A stretch of 64,000 nucleotides of DNA, taken from the NCBI GenBank assembly GCA_021904315.1, contig CM038917.1:8540041-8604040 (forward strand). The letters are read 5' to 3'. Below, piece by piece: positions 3,541 to 55,085 of the stretch. Numbering within the stretch: the stretch's first letter is position 1; every line of letters begins with the position of its first letter. This stretch comes from Sphagnum magellanicum. Taxonomy: Eukaryota; Streptophyta; Sphagnopsida; Sphagnales; Sphagnaceae. The translations under genes were made by a program, and so were the position numbers. The notes beneath the pieces are model-generated. The model saw only the letters and a list, made by a program, of their open reading frames with translations. It searched no databases and was not told the DNA's origin.

Positions 3541-4155
3541 GAAACTTTGTCGAGGTGTCATCGTACAATGTGAGCTCTACCGACATGGCCATGGCTAGTA
3601 GTCTTAATATTTAAAAATTGGGTTAGGAATGTGTGAGTGTGGTGAAGTTATTAGGGGGGTTTAACAACTTTGTGTTAGAATAGGGGTTGATGAGTGTGCA
3701 CAAGGTGTGAGGGGGGGGGGTTTAGTTGTCTAAAATACGATATTAGTTGGGTTAGTTCTTTTCTGCAGCAAAGAGTGGATAAACCATAGTTTTGGAACCT
3801 TATTGGCGGAAGTAGGGATGAGAAATCTCTAGAAGGCTGGGGAAAGAAAAACAAACACTAAAGTTCATGGTGTGTGACAAAACATTGGTCTAGTATTAGT
3901 AGTTGGCAAGTAGCAAGAACGCTGGGAATTTATGAAGTAGGGTGAAAGGGTTAGTGAAAGGCCCAATAGAGCTAGAGCAATCTTCAACCCATAGGAGCGA
4001 AGGATTGATTCAAATCAGCTTAATGATTAAATAGACGATGTGACAGTGTGCCAATGATAATAGGAGTTTCATGAGGACTGAAATGTTTATTTAGATTATG
4101 AGCAAGCTCAGCAAGGAGCTACAAGTACATGTCAAGTCCTAAGCTACGCTTTAGC

Positions 4156-4578
4156 TCATAACTGTAGGAAGTCTAGAATGCGTCGAATGGTACGAACTAG
4201 GTAGTCCGCTTTGCTATTAGGAAGTAGTCGACGAATCGGACCGCGCAACCAACAATAGTGTCCAACGCCGGGAACTGAAGACCAAGCGAAGATAAAAGTG
4301 TCTTCGGTTTCATAATAACCTTCGCAAACAGTTTCGGGTTCGTCACCAGAAGCGGGGTCAACTTGTAATAAGATCACCAGGGTGCGGGAGTTTGGCGAAA
4401 TACGATAATACCAAGCTTGAGGGGGTTCAACTTCGAGACAAGCGCGCACTTCGCGAGGTTCGGGTTCTTCATCGCGAGGATGCTGCGTTAGGGTTAGATC
4501 TAAAGCTGACTTCGAAGGCGGTTCTGCATCCGCTTGTGCGGCTTGGGGCCCGTAGGATGTGACCGTGCGTAATGCCAT
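4156..4578 (-). CDS. Family D small protein, 140 residues, unknown function
   Basis: I do not recognise this protein. The longest frame starts at 4653, but I choose the ATG at 4576-4578 (begins MALRTV). A TATA box sits 90-100 bp upstream of that ATG, and the second genomic copy keeps an ATG at the matching place. Seen in the sequence: an acidic, proline-rich N-terminal third (residues about 15-45, many E, D and P), then a compact region rich in aromatics and arginine (WYYRISPNSRTLVILLQ at about residues 55-71; FIFAWSSVPGVGHY at about 90-103), ending in a basic, probably helical tail (residues about 105-140). There is no signal peptide or membrane segment. The frame is clearly more GC-rich than its flanks. 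A related, diverged copy at 53568-53963 keeps the aromatic core. It may be a mobile-element or virus-derived DNA-binding or accessory protein. That is inference only. Confidence 0.6.
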   Translation of the reverse strand: MALRTVTSYGPQAAQADAEPPSKSALDLTLTQHPRDEEPEPREVRACLEVEPPQAWYYRISPNSRTLVILLQVDPASGDEPETVCEGYYETEDTFIFAWSSVPGVGHYCWLRGPIRRLLPNSKADYLVRTIRRILDFLQL

Positions 4579-4667
4579 ACTTTCAAGGAAGAGAGGAAAG
4601 ATCTTCAACAAAATTGAATTGACAATGGAGGTGGGGTGGACTTGTGACATCAAGTTTTGCGGTCATG

Positions 4668-4675
4668 ATTTATAG
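4668..4675 (-). promoter_or_regulatory. TATA box of the family D small ORF
   Basis: On the minus strand this reads CTATAAAT, about 90 bp before the MALRT start codon. Copy 2 keeps CTTATAAATT at the same place (54054-54062). Conservation in both copies supports a real polymerase II promoter. Confidence 0.55.
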
Positions 4676-4834
4676 GCCGAGGAAAGGAAGAGGAGGTGTA
4701 AATGATGGCCTAGGACCATGGTAAAGTAAAAATTTAAGGTCAAAGGGTAAAAAATAAAATAAAATGAAGGTTCAAATAAAGTTGCTCAAGGGGAAGTGGG
4801 AATAGGTAGCAAGGAACCTTCTTCTTCTCCTCCC

Positions 4835-5030
4835 ATTGACCACCAAGCATGGGATCCTTCATTGACCACCAAGCAAGGGATCTTCATTGACCACCAAGCA
4901 AGGAACCTTCTTCTTCTCCTCCCATTGACCACCAAGCATGGGATCCTTCATTGGCCACCAAGCAAAGGATTTTCATTGACCACCAAACATGGGATCCTCC
5001 TTTGACCACCAAGCATGGGATCCTCCCTCC
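4835..5030. repeat. Iteron-like array: seven 25-26 bp direct repeats
   Basis: Units of the type ATTGACCACCAAGCATGGGA begin at 4835, 4861, 4886, 4924, 4950, 4975 and 5001. The spacing is 25-26 bp except for one 38-bp unit, and there is an 89-bp higher-order repeat. The array lies between the minus-strand TATA box of the small ORF and a plus-strand TTTAAAAGG box near 5044. Copy 2 has only about two degenerate units (54206-54262). It could be a set of protein-binding sites between divergent promoters, or simply a minisatellite. Confidence 0.8.
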
Positions 5031-5239
5031 TCCCTTCTCCTTCTCTTTAAAAGGCGGCTCGGATGATTGGGGGGCTCTCTCTTTGCCTTGGAGAATTTCC
5101 TTGAATACTTGTTTCACAAGTTTTTTGAAGGGAAATGAGGATGAGACTTAGGAGAGGGAAGAAGGAAAGGAGTGGAGGGAAGATCTTGTAATAATTTTTA
5201 GGAATGGGGGTGAGGAATGATGAGGTTGGAAGGTTAGAA

Positions 5240-5800
5240 TTTAGAGAAACTTCACAAAAAACCTCTCGGGTTTCGTAGTATAACTTCCTAGTTATTTAGC
5301 TGCAAAGCCTAAGATTTGGTGGGTAGATGCGCCTTGTTGTTAGCTTTCTAGAGAGCTATAGCAAGCTAAATTTGAACGACGTATGTGGGAGAAACAATTC
5401 TCCAAGCGACTAGGGGTCTACAGTCGAGTTGGACCAATTTCCTTTGCAAAACCCTTTCGGGTTTCGTAGCATAACTTCCTAGTTATTAGCTGCAGATCTT
5501 GATATTTGGTGGAAAGGTGCGCCTAGTGGTTAGCTTTCCAAAGAGCTATAGCAAGCTAGAGTTGGACAATGTATGTGGGAGAAAAAATTCTCCAAGCGAC
5601 TGGGGGTCTGCAGTCGAGTTGGACCAATTTCCTTTGCAAAACCTTCTCGGGTTTCGTAGCATGACTTCCTAGTTATTTAGCTGCAGATCTTGATATTTGG
5701 TGGAAAGGTGCGCCTAGTGGTTAGCTTTCCAAAGAGCTAAAGCAAGCGAGATTTGGACAACCTAAGTGTTAGAAACAATAGTTCAAAGGCTTGCTGGTTG
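5240..5800. repeat. Tandem array of about three 190-bp units
   Basis: The anchor GGGTTTCGTAG recurs near 5268, 5459 and 5649, a period of 190-191 bp. Each unit has the same order: CTCGGGTTTCGTAG, a GCTGCAGATCTTG-like word, GCGCC, TTAGCTTTCCAAAGAGCTA, then an AAGCGACTGGGGGTC-like word. The third unit is partly diverged. Copy 2 of family D holds two units (about 54505-54880). It does not read as coding on either strand. Confidence 0.85.
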
Positions 5801-5953
5801 TAACCAAGTTTAAGAAGGTGTTGAGTCCATAAGTGTTCATTAAAAGGGATGATAATTTGATATAAGGTTCTAGGATTTGGAATGTGTGAATCTAAATAAC
5901 AAATCTATCAATGCTAAATTGTGAATGATGTTTGGAAGGCAAAATAATTAACT

Positions 5954-6411
5954 TCATCTATGAACGTAACCTAATAACCAGACATACATTCGCATTCGTT
6001 CTTCATCGGTAGCATTTGTGCTTTCAAGCATAGTCACCTTGTAGAACCAGAGGTAGAGGGACAAAAGTTGCCTCACATATAACAAGTCTTCAAATAAATT
6101 GGAAACATCCAAGACATAGACTCCTTTGAACGCACATGGAAGATATTTGACATTAGTGCCGTTGTGATCCCAGGCTATGAACACACTCTCCTTGTCCATT
6201 ACATTCTTAATTCTAACATATAATGTTAATGGTATGTCCTTGTATGATAAGTTCTCAAATAATCGAGAAATATCCACATCATATTGGCCTTCTCCCTAGC
6301 TTGGGAAAAATATATGACATCTGCCTCCTCATAGACCCAAGTCACATTGGTGTGGTCATCCCATTTGCTACCTTGCTCGATTATCTTTCCTTCAACTTGA
6401 TTGCTCAACAT
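5954..6411 (-). CDS. Family D second coding region, two overlapping short frames
   Basis: Two minus-strand frames overlap: 6226-6411 (61 residues, starts MLSNQVEGK) and 5954-6277 (107 residues, contains SVFIAWDHNGTNVKYLP and ends with a region rich in L, Y and W). I do not recognise a family. The first start codon follows a TATA box (6571-6580) and an AT-rich leader. Part of the downstream frame (the block around ATDEERMRMY) is also present at the end of copy 2 (about 54980-55080), so it belongs to the repeat. The FIxAW pattern faintly recalls FIFAW in the MALRT protein, so the two could be distant relatives. That likeness is weak. Coding status is uncertain. Confidence 0.4.
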
Positions 6412-6570
6412 ATTTCATTTTGTGAAAAAATTTGGAATCACAAAAATAACAAAAAGAAATGCATGGAATCCCCTCCCCCATTCTCTTTAAAGTGTTGCGC
6501 ACTAATTGTCCAAAACAACTAGAATCATACACGTTGAAAAGAAAGGGAGGAAAATTTTGAATTTAAACCT

Positions 6571-6580
6571 CCTTATATAG
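6571..6580 (-). promoter_or_regulatory. TATA-like box upstream of the second family D frame
   Basis: On the minus strand it reads CTATATAAGG, about 165 bp before the ATG at 6411. Its position suits a promoter for the 5954-6411 region. Confidence 0.4.
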
Positions 6581-6732
6581 GTTGAATTAGGGTACATCAA
6601 AATTAGGGGCACCCAAAAAATTTGGCGATTGAAAAAATTCGGTCACCATCTAATGACATTCCCATGTACTAACCACACGTGGTTATTGAACATTATTGGA
6701 TGGTGATCACCAATGGGCTATGTGGACAATCA

Positions 6733-9894: not shown

Positions 9895-10714
9895 TGACGC
9901 GCTCCCAAGTCACGGGGTGAAACCCACTTGAGGGTTTCACAAAGTCAAGTTGCGGAAAGTTGAACTTGGTAGCACGCTCCTGGCTTCCAACTCTAGAAAG
10001 GGGTAGAGGGTCCAGTTGGGAGCCCCGGGATTAGACTAGGAAAAAGGTTTAGTAGATCAAGCATGAATCTGCACCAAAACAAACCACCCACGTGGTTAGT
10101 TCGCATTCCGGGACCCCTTTGGGTGTTGGGACTCGCCACGGGCACTTGGACACACAAGACTCACCATGGCCCGGACTCGGGGGAAGCCACCACCTTCCCC
10201 CATATAGTATTCTCTGCGGCTGGTCGCAAAGGCTACATCCGAATGGCACAAATTCCCGGGACTCCCGAAATGGAGTCCCGAAATGGTCCCAGCGAGACTC
10301 CTGGAACTTTGAACCGCCATAACTCCCGACTACAGAGTTGGATCGTGACGAGGTCTGAACCAAAGTTATAGCCCTCGTCGAGATCTTTCTAACGCCATGT
10401 CGCACACTCAAATCAGACGTCGGGAAGAGGTCGATTCCCGACTTTTAGTGGTCGGGAGTCAAACTGCCAGTTTGACTCCCGGCCCTTCTTTTGCCCATAA
10501 CTTGGGCTGCAAATGTTCGAATTGCCAATGCGAGGGCATTTTCGATATCTAAGTTTCAAGACCTTTCCAATGACACCAAGAACACCCCAATGCGAGGTGT
10601 TTAGCCCCTTGCTGTCGAGCTCTGAACATTCGGGAGTCCCGGAAGACTCCCAACCTCCAACTTTTCCAAGTGTTGGGCTTCACCCCCACACTTGGCCAAA
10701 GTGGGGTTGCGACA
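9895..10714 (+). repeat. Family S solo LTR 1 (820 bp)
   Basis: Starts TGACGCGCTCC and ends GGTTGCGACA, the TG...CA form of an LTR. Flanking 5-mers are GTACA and CTACA (four of five match). The interruption of the integrase frame at a tyrosine codon fits an insertion. It is GC-rich against AT-rich surroundings. Four other copies share the ends and the internal order: CACGCTCC, CACCTTCCCCC, AGAGCTTTCC-type words, GACTTTTAGTGGTCGGGAGTC. No internal retroelement sequence is attached, hence solo LTR. Confidence 0.8.
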
Positions 10715-13444: not shown

Positions 13445-14230
13445 TGACGCGCTCTTAGGTCCTTGGTTAGTCCCAAGTTGGGACTAACTTGCTCAAGTTG
13501 CGAAACTGGGAAGGACTCAGGGCACGCTCCCAACTTCCAGCACTACAAGGGGGTGAGAGGGGCGTGTTGAAAGCTTCGAGATTAGACTAGGAAGAAGGAC
13601 AAGCTACTTAGTTATTCGGTCGTGCATCCAAATCCAACCAACAAGCTGGTTAGAACTTATTCTGCATACTTTTGGTGTTGGGACTAGCCACGGGCAACCT
13701 TGGACTCACTTGACTCACCACAACCCGGACTTGGGGGAAGCCACCACCTTCCCCCATATAGTATTCTTTGCGTCTCACCGCTGCACTTGCATCCGAATGA
13801 CACTTTTTCCCGGGACTTCCGGGACTTTGGGTGTTCATAACTTCTCGCCCCGACCTCGGATTGGGACAAGGTATGAAGCAAATTTGTAGCTCTCCTTAAG
13901 AGCTTTCCAACGATGTGTTGCACTTCACCTGCACGCAACCGAAATCAGGTTGATTCCCGACTTTTAGTGGTCGAGAATCAAACTGCCAGTTTGACTCCTG
14001 GCCCTTCTTTCGACCATAACTCGTGCTGCAGATGTCCAAATGGATCATGCGAGGCCATTTTGGATATTTACACTTCAAGACCTTTCCAACAATATAGAGA
14101 ACACCTCAATGCGAGGTGTTTTGACCCTTGCAATTGCGTTCTGAGTTTTTGAGAGTCCCGGAGGACTCCCAAGTCCCATTTTCAGGAGTGTGAGTGCTCC
14201 TCACATTTGCCTCAAAGTGGGGTTGCGACA
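13445..14230 (+). repeat. Family S solo LTR 2 (786 bp)
   Basis: Starts TGACGCGCTC and ends GGTTGCGACA, with the same internal order as solo LTR 1. The 5-mer TAAAA stands directly before it and again two bases after its end (14233-14237), a plausible target duplication with slightly shifted ends. It lies inside Copia remnant 2, but the Copia leader does not resume on its right side, so DNA was lost there. Confidence 0.75.
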
Positions 14231-14772
14231 CATAAAATTTAGCAAACTCAAAATTAACATTTTCAAGTTTTAGTTATTCATGTTGTCATAAACTTTAATG
14301 GGAATCATTATAAATTTTTTGGATGAATTCTAAGAAGATTATGGACCTATAATAAACTTTTGAAATGACAACACTATGTTTGTCACATAGAAAAAATGAA
14401 AAATGTGGATCAAAAAATATGTCAAAATAATGTCAAAATAAAAATTTTAAAATAAAACATCATCAAATGAAAAACTTATTATTAAAATCCATTGAAACTT
14501 TTTTTAATATATATTTTTTAATTTTTAAAAAAGATTTAAATAACATGATTATTATAAATTTTTATCCTTGAAAGTCCATTTCACATTAAAATTTTAGTCT
14601 TTTGCATGGATTTTTTTATCAATCACATGTTTAAGGATATTCATAGGTTGGCTTATTAATATTTATGATTAAAAGCATAGGGGATAATTATAGGATTTAT
14701 GGTTTGAGAATTGTTAAAACTGCAAAACAATTTGCTAGTGTTAGATTATGGACTCTCAAATGCCACTTTTGA

Positions 14773-23505: not shown

Positions 23506-24063
23506 CAAAAAGGATATAGATGCTTCAATCCTTCCATTCGGAAGTTGCAAGTGAGTAAAGATGTTGTGTTTGATGAGATGGTTAACTGGTACTCACCATT
23601 GAAGATAATAGAAGATGGAGAGGCTAGAAATCGTGGTGTTTCATCAAATTTGGAACAAGAATCACAATTAATTAGTGAACCACAAAAGTCTTCAATTAAT
23701 GGGTCTAGTAGCACTCCATGGAAAGGAAGATTAAGATCTTCAAACATTGTCTATGGTTGTTTTCAAACATCATCTAAAAATTCTCATGTAGATGGTGAAT
23801 CAAATGAGTTAGAGAAGAGTGAGGGTGAAGAATCAATAATCATTTTAGTTACTATTCCCGGAGCTCGAATGACCAAGAAAGCTTTGAAAACACCTGACAA
23901 CAACAGTGGAGTACGAAGATCCACACGAGTCAAGTACCATGTACAAATACTCACATATGATGGCTTTGTAGTTCATCATTACGCATACATGGTGAGAGTT
24001 ATATAAGAGGTTGAACCCATTTGTTTTGAACAAGCAATTGGAAACCCTAAGTGGGACAATGCC

Positions 24064-41114: not shown

Positions 41115-42639
41115 GTTAAAATTTCTTTATTTATAAAAAAATCCAACATAATTTTCTTGTTGGGACATTTTATGGTTTCATCATTTAATTCTCTTTTAAT
41201 TCTTCAACCAAGAGTGCATGTGTTAGCTCAACATGGTAATTTTTTTACATAATCCACATGTGTTATGTTCGCAAGGGTAATTATTTTACCCCTTATATAA
41301 TAATTATTGTATTTAGTCTAATTTAACCCTAGGTTGACCTAAACCAATGTGACATATGGTTGCATTGTTGTTTAAATAGATGTGACTAACACGATGTGAC
41401 AAGGCTGACATTGATAACCCTATCTTTTGTTTTTTTACTGTCCCATAATTGTCCTGACGCAATTATCATCCTATAATAGTTATTATTTTAGAACAGCTAC
41501 CATCCTGCAATAATTACTATCCTACACATATTATCATTTATAAACTTGAATGAAGATTCATAGTTGCCTGGAGACCTATGGTTTCTGCTTACCATCTATA
41601 ACATTTACATACTAATATATATATTGTTATTTATTATCTATAGCCCCTTTACAAACCTTTTAGTTGTGATGCTTACCATTTGCAACAACATTACTTTCCC
41701 TGCAAACCTCAAATCTCAAGTCTACCTCCTTATTGCTACCTTCTAATGGTAGCTACCATCTTGTGGTAGAGTGTATTTTTTACTCTAGAAACAACCACAA
41801 ATAGTAGATAATTTTTTTAATCTTATAAAAAAAACACATAATTAATATATGAATACAACAAAACTCTATATAATCCTAGTATGTATTATCCCTATATTTC
41901 CTTCATATTTTAAATAAAACAAAAAACATCAACAAAGAGCCATGAAAATAGATCAACTATTTTCCATTACAATGATAAAAGTACATTCTACTTCCATACT
42001 CTCTTCCTCTCACTCCAATGTCATATACACACTTCTTCCTTAAGAAAATCCTCTTAGTCACATTAAATTTAGAATTGTGATATTTTGAATACAGAGCAAT
42101 GATTCATAATCCCTTCTTATCCTCTTTTTAATCCCCCTTCTCTTATATCACACAAGGTCCACATGCGTTCCATGAAAATAAGCCTTTTTTATCCTTATTA
42201 TAATCCTTCCACACTTCCCATTAGTTGGTTGGATAACAAATACCAATTCTTATTATTTTTATAAATCCCCATGTGATTAGTGAATTGCCACCAACCATTC
42301 ATCTACCTAATTTTGTTAATTTCATCCTTTAGTAAAGATGATAAGCCACTACCACTAGTAACCTTTTAGTTACTAGGATGCCCATGGCACTAATTAGCTT
42401 AAGAATTTATACCCTTAACAACTCACATATTGGTTAAGTGTCAAAAGGGTATTTCAATACTAAAGTTGTACCATGGTTGTTTTTATATGGGCGTCAATAT
42501 TTTTGCACACTCCTTTAATCCTTCATGGTTGGACAAATTCTTGTCTTTTAACTTGAAATATGCATTTATGTTTAATGAAAGTCCAATTTCTTGGCAAAGC
42601 GAAAAACAATTTATAGTGGCTTGTGAGCCATATTGATGT
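41115..42639. other. AT-rich interval, no gene seen
   Basis: Contains short degenerate repeats of TACCATC and ATAATTA words (41470-41760) and no coding sequence I can support. Confidence 0.55.
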
Positions 42640-43203
42640 AACCATGTGCGATAGACTTAATTTTTAAAAGTTGCATCAAGGATATTCAAATTTGGTAAGG
42701 TTATTAGGGGGTTTCAGTAGCTTCATGTTAGAATAAGAAATGATAAGTGCACATGGTTGCTAGGGGGGTTGTTTTCTTTTTTGAAATATGATATTGGATG
42801 AATAAGGTGTTTGGTTAGTTCTTTTTTTTCAACAAAAGGCTAGTAATCATAGTTTTAGAACATTAATTGTGTAATTAGGGGTGAGAAATCTTTAGAGGGT
42901 TAGGGTTAAAAGTAGACACCAAAATTCGTAATGTTCAACAAAACATTGGTCTTGTTCTAATATTTAATGGGTAACAAGGATGTTTGAGATTCATAAACAG
43001 TTGAAATGGTGTCAATGAAAGGTCCAATGCCTATAAGCCTTATAAGCATAAGACTAATTCGAAACAACTTAACAATTAAATAAATAATGTGATAGGGTGG
43101 CAATGGCAACATGAATTTCATAATGAATGAAACATTTATTCAAATTATGGATAAGTTCAACGAAGAGCTGCAATTACATGTTGAGTTTTGGATTATGCCA
43201 TAG
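42640..43203 (-). repeat. Family D repeat, copy 2, left part
   Basis: Matches 3580-4150 of copy 1 (for example AAGGTTATTAGGGGGTTT, GGTGAGAAATCT and ACAAAACATTGGTCTTG). Interrupted at 43204 by a Gypsy element; resumes at 53536. Confidence 0.85.
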
Positions 43204-43852
43204 TGATAGTGTCGTGACACGTAGTGTCGTGACGTACGATGTTATAAGGGTGTAAATCCATAGAAAACTTTACTAAACAAAAATATTAAAACCAATCAAA
43301 GATAAAAATTAATCAACCAAAAAAATATGCACACACACATATATCCAATGCACAAAAAGAGGCTAAGATGAAATTCTCATGTATTGAATTGCAAAGAAGG
43401 AAAGAACATGTAATGTATGTAGACGGTGGTTGTGCAATAGTCGTCGTGAGCATTTAGAAATCCAATCTAACTATGGAGGAAACTTTCTTGACAAAGGAAT
43501 TCGAGAAAAAACAAAAAAACAAGGGAAGGGCTTGACCTTTTATACAACCGCCAACAAACTGAAACCTTAAGCACCTAATAGCATATAGTCACCTAAGAAC
43601 GTACATTAATTTTAAAAGGCATGATGGACATGCCCGTAACTGGCCATCATGTATGAGGCCATGTATATGCATGAAAGCTGTCATGACGTGTAGTGTTGTG
43701 ATGTACGGTGTCATAAAGGTGTAAATCCATAGTAAACTCTACTAAACAAAAAAACCAAAACCAATCAAAGGTAAAAACTAATTAACCGAAAAGAGATGCA
43801 TGCACACATACATACAATGCACAAAAAGAAGTTGAGATGAAATCCTCATGTA
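43204..43852 (-). repeat. 3' LTR region of element B with flanking 174-bp direct repeats
   Basis: A core of about 295 bp (43384-43678) is homologous to the 5' LTR. It is flanked by two 174-bp direct copies of another sequence (43210-43383 and 43679-43852, each starting TGTCRTGAC and ending CATGTA in plus orientation). The polypurine tract (read in plus as TCCCCCCCTAGACTTG) follows at 43853. The 174-bp unit is absent from the 5' LTR. Confidence 0.8.
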
Positions 43853-44199
43853 TCCCCCCCTAGACTTGAATCGAGAAAAACGTGGCATGGTCTAAGTAGA
43901 AATCAAGGTGCTATAGGAGAACATGATGAACAACACCAAATGCCGGTAGGAACTTGAGTGAGCTTCAACTTGAAGCAGAATAGATGATATCCACCATTAT
44001 AGTTATCGCAAAACAACATTTGATCAACATCGTCTATCTTTTAACATACTTGACATGGACAGTCAAGTGGAGGAATCCAAATTGACGTGATGATGGTAGG
44101 ATCTCAATTCGGCAAGTGGTAGGGTGCACAATTTTTGGAATGATCTCGAATTATGTGTCTGTCCGCTCCTTGAAACTCTAACATACCTGAAGGCTTGAT

Positions 44200-45560
44200 C
44201 ACCTTAATCCTCAAGATAGTGCGATCGGAAGAAGTGTCTAGAATATCATTAAGTCATTGCTTGAGATACACAAAATCACCAATATCAAATCATTTCACCT
44301 TAGGTTTGTAACTACCACCTTGTGTGTGTGCATACCGTAAGGTGTCTCGATGTTGTGTAATGGACAAGTTCTCCATGGCCATGGGCATAACCCTCCTGAA
44401 TAGAGTAACCTTCTCTGCAATGACCCTAGCCCAAGTGGTTGGGGAGTTTAAGTCCACAACTTGGTCCATTTGAGCAACAATGGAAGAAGGTGGAATGGGA
44501 TGTCTCCCAAAAAGCAGAAAGTAGGGAGAGAAATGAGACAAAGAGGCGTGTTTGGACATCCTGTAACCCATGGCAATGTAAGGTAGGGCCAGGTCTCAAT
44601 TTTCTTTGTTCTTAATGAAGCAAATCTTTCGCAGTCCTTTCTTGCATGTTTGAACCATCCTTTTTACAAGGCCATCATTAGCTTGGGGATGATCCCTTGA
44701 AGTTCGACAATGGTCAATGAGAGCATGATCAAATAGGTCTTGGAATTCCTCCTCTAAATTCTGATCCTTGATTAGTGAGGCACTTAACACAAGCCCCAAA
44801 CCTACTTAGAACTTGTTGTAAGAAAACCTGGCTGGTGCTATGTGATGATTTGTCCAATAGCGCAATAAGTTCGACCCACTTTGAAAAATGCTAAAAAATA
44901 ATCATGATGTAGACATTACCCCTAGAGGTTTGTGGTAATTTTCCAGCTAAATCACATGACCAGTGATAAAACATGCCCTAAATAGGGAGTGGAGAAAGCA
45001 TGAGCTGTTGAGAGGAGAAGGAAGTTCTCACTCTATCACATTGTTCACACCTAGCAATGACATCTCGGACTTGAACATACATACCTCTCCAATGGTAATG
45101 AGGAGTGAGAAGGCTATAAGTACGCTTAATTCCAAAGTGTCAAAGCTTTAAGTGTACCTTCGGAATAAAAGCAAGCCATTCATGTGGTGGAGGAACCACT
45201 TTGTCACCTTGTGGTAAGCATTGGACAAAATGATTGTCCTTCCATGAGTAATGTTTGAACCATTATTGTGTACGATCCCACTGCTTTGATGTAAGTTGGG
45301 AAAGGTATTCCCCATGCTAAAGAAACCTCAAAGTGTCATAGTCTTCACATGTATCCACAATGGGATGCTCAACCAGGTTATATTACAGTAGTGCAAAATA
45401 ACTAGATGCATAAGATATATGTATTGTTGAAATCTAGTCGAAGTTTTACCTGGCTTTTGAAAAATCTTCAAAGGTAGTGAGGGGTCTCCGCAACATGGTA
45501 TCCACATTCTGATGTGTAATATTAGGTTGGTGAATAACTTTGAATTCATCTTCCTGAAGT
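44200..45560 (-). pseudogene. Integrase region of Gypsy element B
   Basis: Recognisable blocks are RTSRDHPQANDGLVKRMVQT (near 44650-44700) and LSHFSPYFLLFGRHPIPPSS (near 44500), typical of the integrase core and C-terminal side of plant Gypsy elements. Fossil. Confidence 0.85.
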
Positions 45561-45599
45561 ATAAACGCCCAACAAGCTAACTTATCATTAAGCTTATCG

Positions 45600-46700
45600 T
45601 TGGTCATCAACCACTTAATAGGCTAGTGGTTGGTATACAAAGTGAACTTAGTGTCATAAAGATAAGGCTTGAAATGTATGACGGTCCATATAACAGCAAG
45701 ACACTCCCCCTCGTATGAAAAGTAATTGCTCTCAGCCATTTTGTTACTTCAGGATGCATAGGCGATAATATATTCCTTGCCTTCCTCATTAAGTTAGGCA
45801 AGAATAACACTAATACCAAAAGCACTTTAATAAGTGTGTAGAATGAAGACCTTGTTGAAATCAGGTCTTCCCAGAAGGGGAATTTTGAAAGCTTTTCCTT
45901 GAGTGTGTTAAAAGCTTCATGAGCCTTTTCATTCCATGTCCAAGCAACATCATGTTTTACCAATGCATAGAGAGGATGAACAATAATACTAAAGTCTTGG
46001 ACATAAATCTTGTAGTAATTACATATTCCGATGAAGTTCCCCAAAGTGTGAACATTAGTGGGATTGGGCATCTCCAAAATGGCTACTATTTTGGCCCAAT
46101 GAGCCATAATACCATTTGGCAAAATTTTGTGTCTAAGTAAGATTACTAAGGTGATAACAAACTCACATTTTTTAGGATGGATCTTCATATTGACTTTGTG
46201 GAGCCTCTTGGATAACTCCTCAAGATGAGCCAAATGTTGTAGGAGACCCTTGTTATGCATTAGGACGTTAGCTATGTAGCACTTTAAGAAACCTACCCTT
46301 TTGAGAACCTGGTCCATGATTCGTTGAAAGAAGACAGGTGCATTCTTCAATCCAAAAGGCATCACAAGCCATTCCCACAACTTATTACTTCCATGGAATG
46401 TCGTTTTTTTGTGATCCTTCGCAGCGAACACAATTTGGTTGAAGCTTTATTTCAAATCCACAATTGTGAAGATGTTTGAATCTCCAATGCTATTAAACAG
46501 TTCTTTAGGGATGGGCATGGGGTACCTGTCCTAAGGTGTAACTAGGTTCAAAGGCCTATAATCCCCGCACATCCTTTTTTCAGTCCATAATCTAGCTGAA
46601 TTTTTCTTTGTTGGCATTACTGTAGCGGTTGTGAAATTAGAACTTGATGGCTAAATGAGACCAGCTTCATGGAGTTTTTTGCATCTTTCATCTACCAATT
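45600..46700 (-). pseudogene. Reverse transcriptase/RNase H region of Gypsy element B
   Basis: The blocks WEWLVMPFGLKNAPVFFQRIM and HLEELSKRLHKVNMKIHPKKCEF identify a Gypsy RT palm and thumb. Downstream sequence (45600-45800) matches the RNase H start. Fossil. Confidence 0.9.
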
Positions 46701-46999
46701 CCCACTCATGTTTGTTCAACCTATGCCTCCTTCAATAGACGGGTGTCTCATCTATAAGGTCTATAGAGAACTGCATGGTGTTACACCTACCTAAATCTAT
46801 CATTGAGAATGCGAACACATTTTCATACTTAATTAACAAATTTGTGACCTAGAATCTCTCCTTCTTGGTGAGCTGGTTCCCCATAACGAAAGGGTAGTTG
46901 CAAACACATGGAATGGAATTGGAAAGTGTGTTTAAAGAATTTGGTGCATTAGGTTTTCCACTATCCAATTGTGCAAATTCGTAGAAGGTTATAATTGTT

Positions 47000-49050
47000 T
47001 CTCCAAAAACTGATGTACCTCTAGGTGTATAAAAAACAACTTGAATCAAATTACATGGTACCTCTTCTCCCCCAATACTAAGAATGAAATGTAAAGTGTT
47101 GGAGATAGGCAAGTGTACTTGGTCGGGGTGGCATGTGGTCGCATGGCCAGAACTACAAGCTGATTAAATCAGTGTTGGTGTTGTGTACATTTGAAAGAAT
47201 ACACATGTTACCAATAACCATGTAAGGGAATTTAGGTCCATGCTTATCCCCAGTAGAGCGTTACGCTCCAATCTACTCACTTTGATGTGACTAGTAGTGT
47301 AAATTTGGAACCCCATAACCCTTTCTCTTTCTTTTGCACTTGGTTCATACCAAGTGGCTGAAGCATGACGACATACCAAGCTTGGTCCATCTCCCTGAAA
47401 GGCGTGTGCTCATGGGAAGGAGACAAAGGTGGGCTAAGCACCTCTTGGTTTTCCTATTATGTTTGCAAGAAACCAAAGAGGTTTCTTTTGCCTTATAACT
47501 AGTTGGCAGGAGCTCTGATCATTGAATATGTGAGAAACCTGCAAGTTGGGTCTCTGATGGTGTATCTTAGAACCAATTGTAGAATCAAGAGTGGTGCAAG
47601 GTTGGTCCACCAGTTACGCAATCGGTGTGCATAAGAACCGCATTATGCCGCTTCGAGTAGACGTGGCTTTCTAAGGTAATGCTTGACTAATGTGTAGTGC
47701 TTTTAAACTTTCTCCCTTTGGTCAAGCTGAAAAAGGGTGTTTTCAATTACATAACCAAGCGTAAGAGAAATGGATTGAGCCCATGTGATTAATTGTACCA
47801 TGTTTATGAAGAGATTAGATCTTTTGTCACTCAAGCTTTTTCCAAATGTAATTGCTAAAAATCCTTGACATTCCTAACCTAAAATGATGAGGTCCACAAG
47901 GCCAAGTAATTCCATATGCTTCTTTGGAATTAGTTATATGTTAAAAGGCAAAAACGTGAAACTGGCCTTCCATGCGATGGTTGCAAACTATTGTGAAAAT
48001 CTGGCTGTGAGTTCCATCATTTTTTACGTCGCCATTTACCTTACAATAGGATCAATGTTTACGTAGAAATATCTCCAAACCACCATCCCTAACTGTACTA
48101 GGGCTTCGAAACCTGTACCAATACCACCAAAGAGTTTTAGTAATGTAATCCCCACCTTAAGTGGTGTCCAGGTGATTAGATGACGAAGTATTGGCTTAAT
48201 TGGTTTACCATGGCTCCTCATGTTCTCAAAACTAGACAGAGCTTTGACCAAAGGCTCGTGGGCTGCTTTGAACCTCTGTAAAACCTCTAGTCCGTGTTGA
48301 ATGTCCGTAGGAACCACCTTCAAGCTTTTAATAGCTTGGGCGTAAGTTATCTTCTCCTCATCTCCCTCTATCCACTATGGCTAGCTTGTTGGATGTACGA
48401 AATGGTGTGTGCTTCCTTGAACATATAGTGGTGAGCCATAGGACTATGTTTTCATGTAAATCAAGGGGTATGTATCCAAGGTGGTGGCCATTAGTCTCCC
48501 AATCCACTCAGTAGTATGCATGCTCGAACCAATTGTCAATTGTGAATCCTGGTGGAAACAAGGCTGCTTACCTAATGAGCACATCATAACTGGTGGCATT
48601 GGTGAGTAAACATTTAACCTATAGGCAAAGCTCCTAATCTATATTTTCATTGAAGTTAACTATAATCAAATCCGAGCTCTCCCCAAATGCCTCCTTTATG
48701 TTCCCACTAACGATGCGAATGTGCCACATAGATTTTCGTAGTTTAGAATCAAGCATGCCCATCTTCTTAGCGAATTGAATTCCAAAAATGACTAGATGGG
48801 CACCTGTATAAAAAAATACCACTCTAGGTGTATGTCCTCCCACCTGGATTGTTGACTCAGTATTGTTGACAATGGTAATTTCGGTGGCAATGGAAGTTTT
48901 GTCACTAGGTACCACCTTTGGAAATGAGGAAAAGACTTTGTGAAGAGAATGGTTATCCACAACACCTTTGCTGAGTAACAAATCCATAAGTGAGGTGTTT
49001 TTCACTCCCTTCTGATATGTGAATGTAGAATCAAAAGTAGGAGAGCCCAC
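47000..49050 (-). pseudogene. Protease-side region of Gypsy element B
   Basis: Frame 48634-49050 contains a retropepsin-like surrounding (VGGHTPRVVFF, then HLVIFGIQFAKKMGM) of the kind seen between gag and RT in this group. The remaining part is spacer toward RT. Confidence 0.6.
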
Positions 49051-49499
49051 TAGTTTAGCTATGTTAAAATTAGTGATTAGATTACAAACGTCATCTACAA
49101 CACGTGAGCCAATTGAGTGTCTTTCTAAGGTATTAGATGGGACCTATGTAGCATGTGGATCAAGGATTAGTAGAGGACCTGATGTAGTGTTCAAGATATC
49201 TTCTAATACTACAATTATGTCCCTGGTACTTAGTTTCAAATCTTGAAAACAAAACAATGGTGTAGTCACAAGCTTTTGCGCCATTTCACGCATTTAAAGT
49301 TGGCATTCCATAAGTTGATCAATGGAAAATTGTGTGTTTTCTTGATGTACATGTTCTCCTAGGATACAAGAATTTGATGCCCTAACATCTTGTGGTGTAG
49401 TAGTCTCCTCCCCCCTCGCCAACAAGGTGCGTTCTTCTTCCGTGTTGAGAGGACGAAAAGATTGTGGCATGATTGCTCGAGCTCCTTTAGCCCTAATAA

Positions 49500-51311
49500 T
49501 AGGACTTGAACCAAATGCGAGTCCATCAGTCTGAATTACCTACTTAGTGGTAAAAACTTTGGGTGCCACACTAGCCTCTTGTGCCACAAAGTAGGAAGGG
49601 CAAAAGGAAGTGGCAAATTTTGGTGTGAGACTATAATTGTGTGCACTGGAAAGAACATATTCCCTAACCATGGCATCATGTGGGAGGCCATAGAATGACC
49701 TAAGAGGTCCCTCTCGTGATCTTGAACCTTGTACAAGTTGGGCATGACTAGCAAGTTGGGAAGATTTTTTTTTAGATTAGCAAGTTGGGCTTTTAATGAT
49801 TCAAGTTCATTTTGGAAAGTTTGAACTTGAGCGGCATGGGCTTGAAACACCTCCCTCTTATTAACATTTTGCTTTTTCTTCTTAGCATTCTTACTGGAAT
49901 TACCCTTAGTGGCAAAAGCCTGAATGGAAGGTTGAAGTGCTTCGACTTTTGGTTGAGGGGTAGTGGAAGATGCTGGCAAATTTTGCCATGGTAATCAAAG
50001 TTGTTTCCGTTGTGAGAACTTGGCAAAATAAATAACTTCCTAGTGTCCCTCTTTCCCACAATAATCACAAAAGAGATCCTCGGAAGGAATGTTGCATTCA
50101 TTCGCTTTGTGGGCAAGATTACCACAATAGTTATAAGAAGGTAGGATGGGTGCAGCTAAGTGCACTGCTTTAACCCTTGAAAAAGAATGTGATGATTTGG
50201 TTGGCATAGCTGGTGGAGGATGAGGTGTTGAACGTGATGGAATCTTCATAGTATTGGCCTCATAGTGTGCATGAGCTAGTTCCAACTTTTTAAAAATGTT
50301 GTACATATCCAACAAATTCTACGAGTTTCCAAATTCTGCAAAAAATTCGTTGCAAATCCTACGCATGTAGTGTCGAAATACCTTCCAATGAACGAAAATA
50401 CCGATGGGCAATTTCCAAGTTTTTGGTGCTCTAAGTATCATATTTAAGCTTGAGAAGCCTCTTGTAGAGCATCTTGAGGGTTTCATCCTTTTATCAAGAG
50501 AAGGTGGTGAGCTGTAGAATTTTTTCAAAACTCTTCATCGAAAATTCCAACTCAAGAACTCGAAAGAATTCCCTCACTAGATCAACAAAAGCTAGTGCAT
50601 CAATGGTGGGAGGATTGTTTGCGGTAGAAGCAATGAGTTGTTGAAGAGAAAAATTTATTGAAGTAGGTACCGAATTTGGATTATTGTGTAAAGTCCCATG
50701 ATGTGCAATGGTAGCTTGAAGTGCAGCTTGACAAGCGATGGCAATGTCTATGGCATGAACTGGATTAGGATTTGGGTGATGCCCAAAATCCTCGGAGAAT
50801 GTTGTTCGTAGACATCCAATGCCTCATAATGCACATAACGAACCAGTTGTTTGAATGCAAATGCCTCGGTGTAATTAACGCCATACTTGAGTTCTAATTC
50901 ATAAACCATAGTTGAGAAAGTTGCTTTGAATTTCTTCAAAAAAATGGTACTTGGCCTTCCGCTGAACTTTTCAATTCTCCTAGGGGAACTCCTGACCTCC
51001 ATGGCATATATGGGTGTAGAGGTCATGGCTTGTAGCAGAATATACGGTGATGGTGTGAAAACAGGTCCAACAGCAAGCATACCCCACTAATTAACCCCTG
51101 CAAATGGACTCTGATGTACCGTTGATGTAGTGTAACCTGAACCTGCATTATTGGTAAGAGTTGTACTAAATGGTAGTGGTGTTGCAAATGCTTGATGGTA
51201 CCGCTGTGAAGATCATGAATTTAAAGAAATCGGCTTAAACGATTGTGTGTTATTTCATAGCTGATACTTGGGCTCTGGCTGAACGATAATGCTTTCATCA
51301 TCTGAGGACAT
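49500..51311 (-). pseudogene. Gag region of Gypsy element B
   Basis: Begins at the ATG at 51309-51311 after TTTTGGGGCATGGGACAACA, a leader word shared with element C. The frame 50748-51080 (EKFSGRPSTIFLKKFKATF) is a capsid-type region. Two zinc knuckles (YCGNLAHKANEC and CDYCGKEGH) lie at about 50040-50150. Fossil. Confidence 0.8.
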
Positions 51312-51359
51312 GGTGTTGTCCCATGCCCCAAAACTTTGTAACAATATAGAACACTAACT

Positions 51360-51970
51360 ACAAAGTTCTAACACAACGTATGGTTTGAAGAATACGGTGT
51401 GTTAACGGGAATGAACAACAACTAACGGAGGTCGGACGAACGTCAAATAGAGGTCGGATGAAGGTTGAACGGAAATTAAATGGATGTTGGACGGAAGTTA
51501 AATGGATGTCGGACAAAACGGTAAAACGACAAGATGTCAAAGCAATAGAAGAACAGGATGGCAGGACGACATCACAGCCGGACAATAATCAAACGGAATT
51601 GGACAAACATTCGATAGAAGTCCAATGAACATTAGACAAAAGTCGAAAGGAAGTCCGATGAATGTTGGACGAAAGTCTATGGACGAATGTTCATGATCTA
51701 TGGATGGACGTTGGATGTAATGACTCACGACTATAGCGGCTGGTGGCTATAATGGCCGATGACTACGATGGTCAGTGGCTACAATGGTTGACAACTGATG
51801 CGGTCGACCACGCAATGGATGGTGATGCGACAGTTAACGACTGCAACAGTTAACCACGCGATGAACGATGACACAATGGTCGATGACTACAACACTCCTA
51901 AGCCTTGCAGCAAGGCCCAATGCTACAATGTAGCTCGTAACGCTGCTACGATGGCTGACGTTACAGTGTA
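51360..51970. repeat. Leader minisatellites of Gypsy element B
   Basis: 51420-51720 repeats a 22-25 bp word of the type GGATGTTGGACGAAAGTTAA. 51720-51900 repeats ATGACTACRATGGTCGRTGG-type units. The matching leader of element C carries related arrays (63309-63660). Confidence 0.7.
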
Positions 51971-52179
51971 ACATCCATAAGCAAATTTTGGGTTTTTTTT
52001 TTACTTCATGCTGTAGCAAGAGTCTTTGAAGCGAATGCCTCTGCGTGAGAGAGAATGTGTCTCTACGCAAAAGAAAGTGAGAGAGAGAAAGAAACCCCTC
52101 CAAGATACATCATTCCCTCGATCTTAGCTCTATTGGTTAGTAGAAATGTAACAACACAAGCTCCCTGCGGTAGTAGTAA

Positions 52180-52265
52180 CACCACCAACAACAGTAGTAA
52201 CACTAACAGCAACACCAACGCCAACACCAGCAACACTAACAGCAACACTAGCAATAACACCAGTA
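52180..52265. repeat. AAC-rich triplet/hexamer tract
   Basis: AACACCAACGCCAACACC-type low-complexity repeat next to the solo LTR insertion site. It is open in one plus frame (Asn/Ser/Thr only) but is simple sequence, not a gene. Confidence 0.75.
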
Positions 52266-52303
52266 AAAGAAACTCAAGAACTCAAAGCCAAAAGAAGTCT
52301 ACA

Positions 52304-53201
52304 TGTCGCAACTGTAGCTTTGCGTTTGCGACCAAGGCAAGGGCTTGCAAGGTTACGGGCCAAGAGGGAAGTCGGGGGTCACACTTCATGCTCTCGGGAG
52401 TGCAGGAGAGTGTGAGGGAATGAACCTTCACACTCCCAAGGCAATTCCCACTTGGGGAGTTGGAGTCCCCGTGGACTCCCAAATTTTTAAGGAACAATTA
52501 CATGGGTCAAAACCCATTAGATTGAGGAATTCTTTATATCATTGGAAATCTATTGAAATGTAGACGTCTAAAATGGGCTTGCATCACCCATTTGGACATC
52601 TGAAACATAAGTTATGGCCAAAAGAAAGGTCGAGAGTCAAATTGGCAATTTGACTCCCGACCACTAAAAGTCAGGAATCGACCCGACTTCCTTGCATGCA
52701 GGTGGCATGAAACATACCGTTGGAAAGTTGTCGATGAGAGCTATAACTTTGCTTTAGACCTCATCTCGATCGGAGGTCTGCACACAAAGTTATGGGGCTC
52801 CAAAGTCGACAATTTTGGGACTCCCACTTGGGAGTCTTGGAACAAAAAAATCATTTGGATGTGGGCCTCATGGAGAGGCACAAAGTATGCTATAAGGGGG
52901 AAGGTGGTGGCTTCCCCTAAGTCCGGGCCGTGGTGAGTCTTATGAATTTGAGTTTGCTCGTGGCTCATCTTAGCACCAAAAGTGCTCCAACTATGCACTA
53001 ACCACCTTGTGTTGGTTTTGTGCAGGTTCGTGTGAGTAGTTGATGCTTGTCACTCTTTTTAGTCCCATTTCGAAGCTCCAACATGCCCCTTTACACCATC
53101 AAGTGCTATGAGCCAGGGAGCGTGCCCCCCACTCTTTGTTCTTTCGATGTTTTCAGTTTGGATTCACATTTGAATCCATTAAGGAGCTTGGAGGTGCGTC
53201 A
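52304..53201 (-). repeat. Family S solo LTR 5 (898 bp), nested in Gypsy element B
   Basis: In plus orientation it starts TGTCGCAACTG and ends GGTGCGTCA. It is the longest copy and resembles solo LTR 3, sharing an extra block near the GACA end. It sits just inside the 5' LTR of element B. Comparison with element C (CTTAATG...GCTTTGAG) shows the leader resuming on the other side. Flanking 5-mers are not clearly duplicated. Confidence 0.85.
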
Positions 53202-53221
53202 CTGTCACTTTCCACATTAAG

Positions 53222-53535
53222 CAATAGAGATTAGTTTTTCTAGAATTGAATTGCAAAGAAGGAAATAACATGTAGTGTATATAGATGGTGGCCATGTAAT
53301 AGCCGCTGTGAGCATCTAATCTAATCTAACTATGGAGGAAACTCTCCTGACAAAGGAATTCTAGAAAAACTAAAAAAAGAAGGGAAGGGCTTGGCCTTTT
53401 ATTCAACCGCCAATAAGATGAAACCTTAAGCAGTTAATAACGTACAGTCACATAAGAATGTATGTTAACCCTAAAAGGCATGATGGGCATGCCCGTAACT
53501 AGCCATCATATATGAGGCCATCTACGAGCATGACA
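53222..53535 (-). repeat. 5' LTR of Gypsy element B
   Basis: About 314 bp, beginning TGTCATGCTCG on the minus strand. Homologous to 61958-62296 over the whole length, with a TATA-like TTGAATAAAAGGCC region. The inner end is assigned by comparison with element C. Confidence 0.8.
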
Positions 53536-55085
53536 ATAATTCATAAATGTAGGAAATTTAGGATGTGTCAAATGGTGCGAACTAAGTAGTCCGCCTTACT
53601 ATTAAGAGGGAGTTGGCGAATTGGATTACGCAACCAACGATAATGTCCAACACCGGGAATTAAAAACCGTGTGAAGATAAAAGTGTCTTTAGTTTCGTAA
53701 CAACCTTCACAAATAGTTTCATGTTCATCACCAGAAGTGAAGTCGATTTGCAATAAAATCACCAAGGTGTGAGAATTTGGAAAAATGCGATAATACCAAG
53801 TTTGAGGGGGTTCAATTTCAAGATGAGTGCGCACTTTTCACAATTCGAGATTTTCATCACAAGGATGTTACGTTAATGTCAAATCTAAAGATGACTCTGG
53901 AGGCGGTTCTTCATTCACTTGTGCAGCTTAAGGCCTGTAAAACGTGGCCATACGTGATGCCATAATTTCAAGGAAAGGAAAAAAGATCTTTAATCAAAAT
54001 CAAATTGGTAATGAATGTGTGGAAGACTTGTTACATCAAGATGCGTGGTTGTAATTTATAAGTCAAGGAAAAGGAAGGAAATGTGTAAGTAACGGCCTAG
54101 AACCATGGTAAAGTAAAACCTTAATATCAAAGGAAAATATGAAAATTTAAGTAAAATTCGTTAGGGGAAAGTGGGAAAAGGTGGAAAAGTGTTTTTCCTT
54201 CTCCTTTCATTGGCCACCAAACATTGGAACCTTCCATTGGTCACCAAGTTGGGATCTTCTTTCATTTCCTTCCTTTTTTTTCTCTTTAAAGGGTGAATTC
54301 GGATCATTTGGGGTTCTCTTTCTAGACATAATTTTCGATTTGAATCTTGAAAATACTTGTTCCTACAACCTTCCTTGGGAGGAAAAGAATGATTAGTCTT
54401 AGTAAATGGTGGAAAGAAGGAAAATAGATTGGATGATTGGAATTTTTTGAAAGAATGGAAGTGAGTAGGGATAATGTTGGGAGCTTGAAATCTTAAAAAG
54501 TTTCACAAACCCTTTCAGGTTTGATAGCATAACTTTTTACTGGTTTGGATGCAAAGCTTGGAATCTGGTAGGTAGATGCGCCTTGTAAGTAGCTTTTTAA
54601 TGAACTAAAGCAAGCTAAATTTGAATAACGTATGTGATAGGAATAATATTTTAAGTGACTAGTGGTCTGCAACCAAGTTGAACTTTCTACCTTCATAAAA
54701 CCCTCTCGAATTTGGTAGCACAACTTTTTACTAGATTGGGTGCAGAGCTTGGAATTTGGTAAATATATGTGCTTTGTGGTTAGCTTTCTAATGAGCTAAG
54801 GCAAGTTAGATTTGAATAACATATGTGATAGGATTAATATTTTAAATGACTAGAGGTCTACTACCAAGTTGAACATGGTGTTGAATCTTTAAAAGTTAGT
54901 TTAATGAGTGACAATTTAACATAAAATTTTAGGATTTGGAGTGTTTGAACTTAGAAAATATATCTATGAATTTTAAATCGTAAATGATGCATTTTTCCTT
55001 CACTAGTAGCATATGTACTTTCAAATATAGTCACTTCATAAAACTAAAAATAGGGGGACAGAAAGTCACCTCACGTGGTTCTTTT
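53536..55085 (-). repeat. Family D repeat, copy 2, right part
   Basis: Resumes family D exactly after the Gypsy LTR. It contains the diverged small ORF, its TATA box (54054-54062), about two iteron-like units, a TTTAAAGGG box near 54288, two 190-bp tandem units (about 54505-54880) and the first part of the second coding region. Much more AT-rich than copy 1. Confidence 0.85.
53568..53963 (-). pseudogene. Diverged copy of the family D small protein
   Basis: Homologous to 4156-4578. The core blocks WYYRIFPNSHTLVILLQ, ETKDTFIFTRF, IPGVGHYRWLRNPIRQ and LNSKADYLVRTI are easily aligned. An ATG (53961-53963) and a TATA box are at the matching positions. It looks broken. Most nucleotide differences from copy 1 are C-to-T or G-to-A, as expected from decay of methylated DNA. 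Confidence 0.75.

What the first reader, a model, noticed from the sequence alone, without database searches (positions are those of the whole stretch)
3548..6590. Family D: an unclassified repeat encoding a small conserved protein, with divergent promoter-like boxes around an iteron array
Seen directly: two copies share a GC-rich 140-codon ORF with TATA box and ATG at matching positions, a set of direct repeats, a TTTAAA box facing the other way, and a 190-bp tandem array. No transposase, RT or capsid motif is visible. Inference: two promoters facing apart across short direct repeats resemble the control region of a small DNA replicon or a self-regulated transposon, so the protein might bind the repeats. 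This is the best candidate here for an undescribed element. It may also be the non-coding arm of a known retroelement.
Basis: partly seen in the sequence, partly recalled or inferred. Interest (0 to 1): 0.7.

Follow-up and report, generated by a model that had tools for sequence, protein, structure and literature searches.

The report
Antisense gene inside retrotransposon LTRs
The repeat is a leftover terminal repeat (solo LTR) of a Ty3/gypsy retrotransposon in what is probably a moss genome, and, unusually, the terminal repeat carries on its opposite strand a small, selectively conserved protein gene of unknown function with a promoter-like box of its own.

Summary
In detail: a 140-codon ORF with a TATA box, a divergent TTTAAAA box, a short-repeat array and a 190-bp array are present, and the family is genome-wide (150 matches scored of 1,124 candidates). 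The unit is not an unclassified replicon. It is a 2,509-bp LTR (window 3569-6077) of a Ty3/gypsy retrotransposon, here solo: 5-bp target-site duplications (13 of 19 copies exact) and, in three other copies, a primer-binding site matching tRNA-Gly(TCC) at 17-18 of 18 bases. Two of these three run on into gag. A sister family has a 13.2-kb element with gag, RT, RNase H and integrase between two LTRs.

What is unusual is the ORF. It lies antisense to gag-pol inside U3 of the LTR. It shows protein-level selection: fixed differences between subfamilies are 19 synonymous to 3 nonsynonymous, while changes private to single copies are 16 to 56 and 25 to 57. It persists at 39-45% identity in the sister family. 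Known plant antisense accessory ORFs lie between pol and the 3' LTR. I rate it a new variant of a known kind; its expression and function are inferred.

The parts
3569..6077 (+). LTR of a Ty3/gypsy retrotransposon, here solo (2,509 bp; TGTGAG...CCTCACA on the plus strand), plus strand = gag-pol sense
   Evidence: Both ends shared by 19 of 20 copies compared, one end only by L014; 64 end pairs genome-wide, median 2,347 bp; PBS and gag follow the same end in other copies
3564..3568 (.). Target-site duplication, left (TACAA)
   Evidence: Sequence; TSD comparison, 1 mismatch
6078..6082 (.). Target-site duplication, right (TATAA)
   Evidence: Sequence; TSD comparison, 1 mismatch
4156..4578 (-). Antisense ORF in U3, 140 codons plus stop; conserved protein without known family
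4668..4674 (-). TATAAAT box upstream of the antisense ORF
   Evidence: TATAWA in 18 of 20 copies at -96 or -104
4834..5024 (+). Array of 25-27-bp units (TTGACCACCAA core) between the two promoter-like boxes
   Evidence: 3-15 units in 19 of 19 D1 LTRs
5046..5052 (+). TTTAAAA box, putative LTR promoter for the gag-pol transcript
   Evidence: TTTAAA in 18 of 19 aligned LTRs; the start of transcription itself is inferred
5257..5779 (+). 190-bp tandem array (2.7 copies) downstream of the sense box (R/U5 side); copy number varies between LTRs
42622..43208 (+). First part (U3 start) of a second, older family-D LTR; preceded by TGGCT
53536..55075 (+). Rest of the same second LTR, followed by TGGTT; holds a broken copy of the antisense ORF (53544-53963, 4 stops)
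43209..53535 (.). Nested element that splits the second LTR

Best explanation
Family D is the LTR of a lineage of Ty3/gypsy retrotransposons; the copies looked at are nearly all single LTRs, presumably left after the two LTRs of an insertion recombined. Shown: ends, TSDs, PBS, gag next to the LTR in two copies, and a sister element with both LTRs. The U3 part of the LTR carries an antisense gene for a protein of about 140 residues. Shown: it is kept as a protein in two families and is under purifying selection while the element multiplies, and copies decay close to neutrally after insertion. Inferred: a promoter at the TATAAAT box drives the antisense mRNA, a promoter at the TTTAAAA box drives the genomic RNA, and the repeat array between them is a shared enhancer. 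Inferred: the protein is an accessory factor acting for the family, most likely a regulator of the element's own expression or of a step of its replication. Because it sits in the LTR, a complete element carries two copies and a solo LTR keeps one.
For: LTR identity: both ends shared by 19 of 20 copies, one end by L014; 5-bp TSDs exact in 13 of 19 and one mismatch in 2 more; the LTR end followed by TTT + TGGTGCGTCTGCCGGGAG in L030 and L031 and, with one difference, L015/L034, which share 880-1,500 bp of internal sequence at about 96%; that PBS pairs with tRNA-Gly(TCC) genes of the same genome, 18 of 18 or 17 of 18 bases; gag follows in L030 (Retrotrans_gag 3.2e-13) and L031 (2.3e-6). Sister family D2: two LTRs 99.4% identical over 1,988 bp, TSD GCTAT on both sides, gag (Retrotrans_gag 2.6e-13, Ty3_capsid 5e-8), RVT_1 1.4e-22 and RNase H, integrase after RNase H (Integrase_H2C2 1.7e-11; rve 4.4e-7, just under its curated cut-off). 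Antisense: ORF on minus, gag on plus, in L042. Selection: A vs B subfamilies dN 0.076, dS 0.542, ratio 0.14 (500 pairs); 22 fixed differences, 19 synonymous and 3 not, against A singletons 16 syn/56 non/3 stop and B singletons 25/57/0; Fisher p 9e-8 and 3e-6. A-B divergence at codon positions 1/2/3 is 0.090/0.076/0.283, whereas A-A is 0.041/0.042/0.037. A-B divergence is 15.9% in the ORF and 28.0% elsewhere in the LTR. D2 protein 39-45% identical to the window protein in 10 of 10 rows, although the C17 D2 LTR gave one DNA match in the window, 112 bp inside the second copy's ORF, and none to the D1 LTR L021.
Against: No D1 element with two LTRs was found: among 66 LTR ends, 0 same-strand pairs within 30 kb, 2 opposite-strand pairs. 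No polypurine tract is recognisable in the 150 bp before the 3' LTR of the C17 element. The C17 element, a recent insertion, carries the same N-terminal frameshift in the antisense ORF of both LTRs, so the ORF is not needed in cis by every mobile copy. Changes shared by two or more copies within a subfamily are only mildly constrained: A 17 synonymous/25 not, B 58/63, D2 45/66 plus 1 stop. No transcript data: expression of the ORF is not shown. The fold is unknown (pLDDT 38.4). Copies were fetched by protein score, which favours well-kept ORFs; this does not readily create an excess of synonymous fixed differences but makes within-family ratios look more constrained.
Confidence: 0.85

Rival explanations
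1. A non-autonomous DNA transposon (TGTGAG...CTCACA inverted ends, 5-bp duplications) that carries its own small gene and is moved in trans by an integrase-like transposase.
For: Six-base inverted ends, 5-bp TSDs; no direct pairs among 66 ends; tight unit length, 62 of 64 pairs between 2.0 and 3.1 kb.
Against: Three units continue past one end into the same PBS and leader, and two of these three into gag; the sister family has the protein in both LTRs of one element. Inverted ends are only six bases and no transposase domain was found in the window protein.
Confidence: 0.04
2. The conserved part is a regulatory DNA or antisense RNA (silencing or dsRNA control), and the ORF is incidental.
For: Antisense RNA control is discussed for plant and animal retrotransposons (PMC7264820, parts 1 and 2 of 3 read); the TATA box is conserved.
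Against: Divergence between subfamilies is concentrated at third codon positions (0.283 against 0.090 and 0.076) and fixed differences are 19 synonymous to 3 not; a DNA or RNA constraint would not be expected to respect codons. The protein is recognisable in D2, where the only DNA similarity found lies in the ORF. A role of the RNA in addition is not excluded.
Confidence: 0.07
3. The protein is a repressor or activator that binds the 25-27-bp array between the divergent promoters.
For: The array lies between the boxes in 19 of 19 D1 LTRs of both subfamilies with 3-15 units.
Against: The one D2 LTR examined (C17) has the protein homologue but 0 units of the array. The protein is acidic (pI 4.9, charge about -6), unlike most sequence-specific DNA binders (recalled). 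Each unit holds TTGACC, which from recall is the W-box core bound by host WRKY factors, so the array may simply be a host-driven enhancer.
Confidence: 0.15

Closest known systems
Antisense additional ORFs (aORF-3R) of plant Ty3/gypsy elements: maize Grande gene23, rice RIRE2, Silene Retand, PvRetro13 (PMC7264820; PMC11963269)
   Same: Antisense to gag-pol, upstream promoter (reported for Grande, promoter-like box here), common in the family, tandem repeats nearby (Retand), function unknown
   Different: Those lie in the internal region between pol and the 3' LTR, once per element. Here the gene lies inside U3 of the LTR, so it is present twice in a complete element and survives in solo LTRs. 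About 140 codons; no TRP28 or other Pfam domain
HTLV-1 HBZ (antisense gene with a promoter in the 3' LTR; passages in PMC7264820 and PMC11963269)
   Same: Antisense protein gene of a retroelement governed from the LTR
   Different: From recall, HBZ is coded largely outside the LTR; here the whole ORF is inside it. No sequence relation was tested
MMTV sag ('LTR ORF'; search listing only)
   Same: A whole protein gene inside U3 of the LTR (recalled)
   Different: sag is in sense orientation (recalled) in an animal retrovirus; unrelated host and role
Plant Ty3/gypsy lineages of Neumann et al. 2019 (PMC6317226, passages): OTA (Athila, Tat, Retand, Ogre), Phygy, Selgy, chromoviruses
   Same: RT, RNase H and integrase as the classifying domains; 5-bp TSDs in 93.4% of elements surveyed there
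   Different: That survey counted extra ORFs only from 250 codons up and left out ORFs in tandem-repeat stretches, so a 140-codon ORF would be missed. The words tRNA-Gly and Sphagnum do not occur in its main text. The lineage of the elements here was not determined

Membership tests
Ty3/gypsy LTR retrotransposon | LTR starts TG and ends CA | tested here: met
   In ORF orientation TG at the start in 16 of 19 and CA at the end in 18 of 19 copies
Ty3/gypsy LTR retrotransposon | Short target-site duplication, 4-6 bp | tested here: met
   5 bp exact in 13 of 19; D2 C17 element GCTAT on both sides
Ty3/gypsy LTR retrotransposon | PBS next to the 5' LTR, complementary to a tRNA | tested here: met
   L030 18 of 18, L015 17 of 18, D2 16 of 18 bases to tRNA-Gly(TCC); ARAGORN of 3 fetched loci (of 7 found) tRNA-Gly
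Ty3/gypsy LTR retrotransposon | Two direct LTRs flanking the internal region | tested here: met
   Met in D2 (C17, 99.4% identical). For D1 itself no pair was found among 66 ends; D1 is known from single LTRs and three units with a PBS, two of which reach gag
Ty3/gypsy LTR retrotransposon | gag, RT, RNase H, then integrase (order separates Ty3/gypsy from Ty1/copia) | tested here: met
   D2 C17 pieces. The copy has several in-frame stops. D1: gag seen, pol not fetched
Ty3/gypsy LTR retrotransposon | Polypurine tract before the 3' LTR | tested here: inconclusive
   No clear purine run in the 150 bp before the C17 3' LTR
Retand/Grande-type antisense aORF-3R | ORF antisense to gag-pol | tested here: met
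   L042: gag on plus, ORF on minus
Retand/Grande-type antisense aORF-3R | ORF lies between pol and the 3' LTR | tested here: not met
   ORF lies inside both LTRs; in the 1,040 bp before the C17 3' LTR the only minus-strand frame of 50 codons or more is a 74-codon open-ended one at the edge of the piece
Retand/Grande-type antisense aORF-3R | TRP28 (PF04195) or other recognised domain (Retand) | tested here: not met
   0 Pfam families at E up to 10; of 20 members one weak Med12 hit at 0.066
Helitron, TIR DNA transposon or small DNA replicon | Transposase/Rep gene or long inverted ends | tested here: not met
   No Pfam domain in the unit's longest ORF; inverted ends of 6 bases; PBS and gag continuation instead

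The most novel reading that the evidence does not exclude
The LTR has become a self-contained, diffusible control unit: a bidirectional promoter, an enhancer array and a gene for a trans-acting accessory protein. The single LTRs scattered through the genome would then be a standing pool of these genes that controls copy number, or helps, later waves of the family, even elements with a broken copy of their own, as the recent C17 insertion has.
Probability: 0.3. Interest if true: 0.75.

Novelty: new variant of a known kind. Interest (0 to 1): 0.52.

Why it matters
Solo LTRs are usually treated as non-coding debris with promoter activity. Here more than a thousand candidate places (first-look count; 150 scored per family) may carry a protein gene that selection has kept across at least two families. 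The contrast between near-neutral decay after insertion and strong constraint between subfamilies is good evidence that an antisense accessory protein matters for a plant retrotransposon's spread, a question left open for Grande, RIRE2 and Retand (PMC7264820). Surveys that look for extra ORFs only in the internal region or only above 250 codons would miss such genes.

Tried and rejected
DNA transposon reading: first favoured after TSDs and the lack of LTR pairs, dropped when the PBS and gag were found.

A longer autonomous partner: the one long end pair (5,431 bp, C6) is an ordinary unit with a roughly 3.2-kb insertion and no further ORF of 100 codons.

A same-strand pair 12 kb apart on C19 (ORFs at 5597942 and 5610097, seen by eye) is not an LTR pair as far as seen: the second unit (L027) has its own exact TSD. 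The stretch between the two was not fully fetched.

Relatives elsewhere: no match in phages, viral contigs (37 pattern stretches, none a relative), prokaryote genome contigs (598 stretches, none), PDB (best E 0.44; profile best 0.66), Pfam, Rfam for the window. No plant genome other than the window's own was available, so distribution among plants is untested.

Fold: single-sequence AlphaFold gave pLDDT 38.4; not interpreted and no fold search was run.

First tRNA pattern, typed from a recalled plant tRNA-Gly, gave 0 matches; a shorter pattern gave 7 places, of which 3 were fetched.

Literature: one search gave 0 papers; one search gave 2, one search gave 13 and one search gave 16 (12 listed), seen as listings except the three papers opened (PMC7264820, PMC11963269, PMC6317226); one search gave 15 papers, about nine of them on MMTV or its superantigen by title and abstract start; the Talaromyces paper opened there (passages) uses 'LTR ORF' for the polyprotein. 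Searches showed no description of Sphagnum LTR families in their listings. So 'not found in print' rests on these searches of open-licence PMC papers only, mostly on listings.
Full report
Where it is. The window lies at C11:8540041-8604040 of a 439-Mb genome in 31 contigs. From recall the size and roughly 20 large contigs fit a peat moss (Sphagnum), but no call names the organism.

The observation. The 140-codon ORF on the minus strand (4578-4159), the TATAAAT box 96 bp before its ATG, the TTTAAAA box facing the other way, the short repeats and the 190-bp array are all present. The protein search of the own genome scored 150 matches of 1,124 candidates; apart from the window itself they are 79-93% identical.

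Ends. Twenty stretches of about 10 kb were fetched, oriented by the ORF and compared. Similarity stops at the same two points in 19 of them; L014 shares only one of the two ends. In ORF orientation the unit begins TGTGAGGCAACTTT and ends GTAGAGCTCACA, with a changed end base in a few copies (TG at the start in 16 of 19, CA at the end in 18 of 19). In the window it is 3569-6077. Of 19 copies with both ends, 13 have an exact 5-bp duplication, 2 have one mismatch (the window copy among them), and 4 have two or three; one of those 4 (L015) is a copy whose end runs into a PBS, so no duplication is expected there. A pattern search found 66 of one end and 69 of the other at up to 2 mismatches; 64 pair up, median 2,347 bp.

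What the unit is. Nine places with the LTR-end 15-mer are followed within 6 bases by TGG. Three of these (L030, L031, L015/L034) read TTT + TGGTGCGTCTGCCG(G/A)GAGG and share 880-1,500 bp of further sequence at about 96%. They are 3 of the 66 ends; only the 20 fetched copies and the loci were read beyond the end. gag follows in L030 (Retrotrans_gag 3.2e-13) and L031 (2.3e-6), each with one stop inside; L015 leaves the shared sequence after 884 bp. The site pairs with the 3' end of tRNA-Gly(TCC): 7 candidate genes found by pattern, 3 fetched, all 3 called tRNA-Gly(tcc) by ARAGORN, 18 of 18 bases for L030 and 17 of 18 for L015. So the unit is an LTR, and its plus strand in the window is the gag-pol sense strand.

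The sister family. A second protein family, 39-45% identical to the window protein in 10 rows aligned, scored 150 of 1,036 candidates. Two members on C17, 10.5 kb apart on one strand, lie in the two LTRs of one element, 15893925-15907077: LTRs 99.4% identical over 1,988 bp, TSD GCTAT on both sides, PBS matching 16 of 18 bases. Its pieces encode gag, RT and RNase H and integrase after RNase H, with several in-frame stops. Both LTRs carry the same N-terminal frameshift in the antisense ORF (both match only from residue 12 on; no gaps between the LTRs over that stretch). So a recent insertion came from a template whose copy was already broken; help in trans, or dispensability, must be allowed. 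No polypurine tract was recognised.

Selection. I compared 20 D1-A, 25 D1-B and 22 D2 ORFs. Mean dN over mean dS is 0.69 within A, 0.31 within B, 0.40 within D2 and 0.14 between A and B (dN 0.076, dS 0.542). For the site counts I dropped two B rows with stops, the window's second copy and one in L028. Fixed A-B differences (at least 90% on each side): 22, of which 19 synonymous and 3 not, at codon positions 3/1/2 = 19/2/1. Singletons: A 16 synonymous, 56 nonsynonymous, 3 stops; B 25, 57, 0; D2 34, 73, 4. Changes shared by two or more copies lie between: A 17/25/0, B 58/63/0, D2 45/66/1. Fisher p, singletons against fixed, 9e-8 for A and 3e-6 for B. A-A divergence is flat over codon positions (0.041, 0.042, 0.037) while A-B is 0.090, 0.076, 0.283; 62 of 75 A singletons are C>T or G>A. 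Along the LTR, A-B divergence is 15.9% in the ORF and 28.0% outside, while A-A shows no such dip (16 A and 3 B LTRs). The plain reading: the protein matters while elements multiply, and each copy decays nearly freely after landing. The copies were fetched by protein score, so within-family constraint is overstated; the synonymous excess between subfamilies is not readily explained by that.

Control region. TATAWA stands at -96 or -104 in 18 of 20 copies, and TTTAAA of the sense box is kept in 18 of 19. Between them lies the array of 25-27-bp units, 3-15 per LTR in 19 of 19 D1 LTRs, absent from the one D2 LTR examined. That the boxes are promoters is inferred. Each unit holds TTGACC, by recall the core of a WRKY site.

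Window copies. The second window copy is a B-like LTR, 42622-43208 plus 53536-55075, flanked by TGGCT and TGGTT and split by a nested element. Both window copies are therefore read as solo LTRs, each with a 5-bp duplication that has one mismatch.

Comparison with print. PMC7264820 (parts 1 and 2 of 3; the last part, references, not opened) describes antisense additional ORFs of plant elements in the internal region between pol and the 3' LTR. PMC11963269 (passages) finds antisense ORFs and tandem repeats in that same region of Retand elements. PMC6317226 (passages) counted extra ORFs from 250 codons upward. I saw no report of an antisense gene inside a plant LTR in the listings. A shift of the LTR border that took a Retand-like antisense ORF and repeats into U3 would link the two arrangements; this is speculation.

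Verdict. An ordinary class of object (solo LTR of a Ty3/gypsy element) with an unusual gene placement and unusually clear evidence of selection on an antisense accessory protein. Function is not established.

Noticed in passing
window 43209-53535: Nested element of about 10.3 kb, starting TGTCGTGACACG and ending CATGACA, with 84% similar terminal stretches (43383-43674 and 53245-53533), inserted in the second family-D LTR.
   Followed up: partly
window 22546-23505 (plus): Ty1/copia-like coding stretch (GAG-pre-integrase, integrase core, SH3-like domain); neighbouring ORFs from 20655 to 25582 look like the rest of such an element but were not run.
   Followed up: partly
window 9895-10714, 13522-14231, 25869-26474, 40367-41134, 52462-53128: A repeat of about 600-820 bp; the copy at 9895-10714 is 92.8% identical to a stretch in the leader of the C17 element that the D1 leader seems to lack.
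   Followed up: no
window 32503-34032 (minus): 509-codon ORF with glycosyltransferase group 1 domain, probably a host gene between the repeats.
   Followed up: no
L012, about 3567 and 5873: A D1 LTR inserted in the roughly 820-bp repeat; the uninterrupted repeat in L042 shows the empty site, with each TSD copy one base away from the target ACTTG.
   Followed up: partly
L014: Two D1 LTRs in opposite orientation with ORFs about 3.3 kb apart, one apparently inserted in or against the other; a similar opposite pair is listed at C8:13248607/13251930.
   Followed up: no
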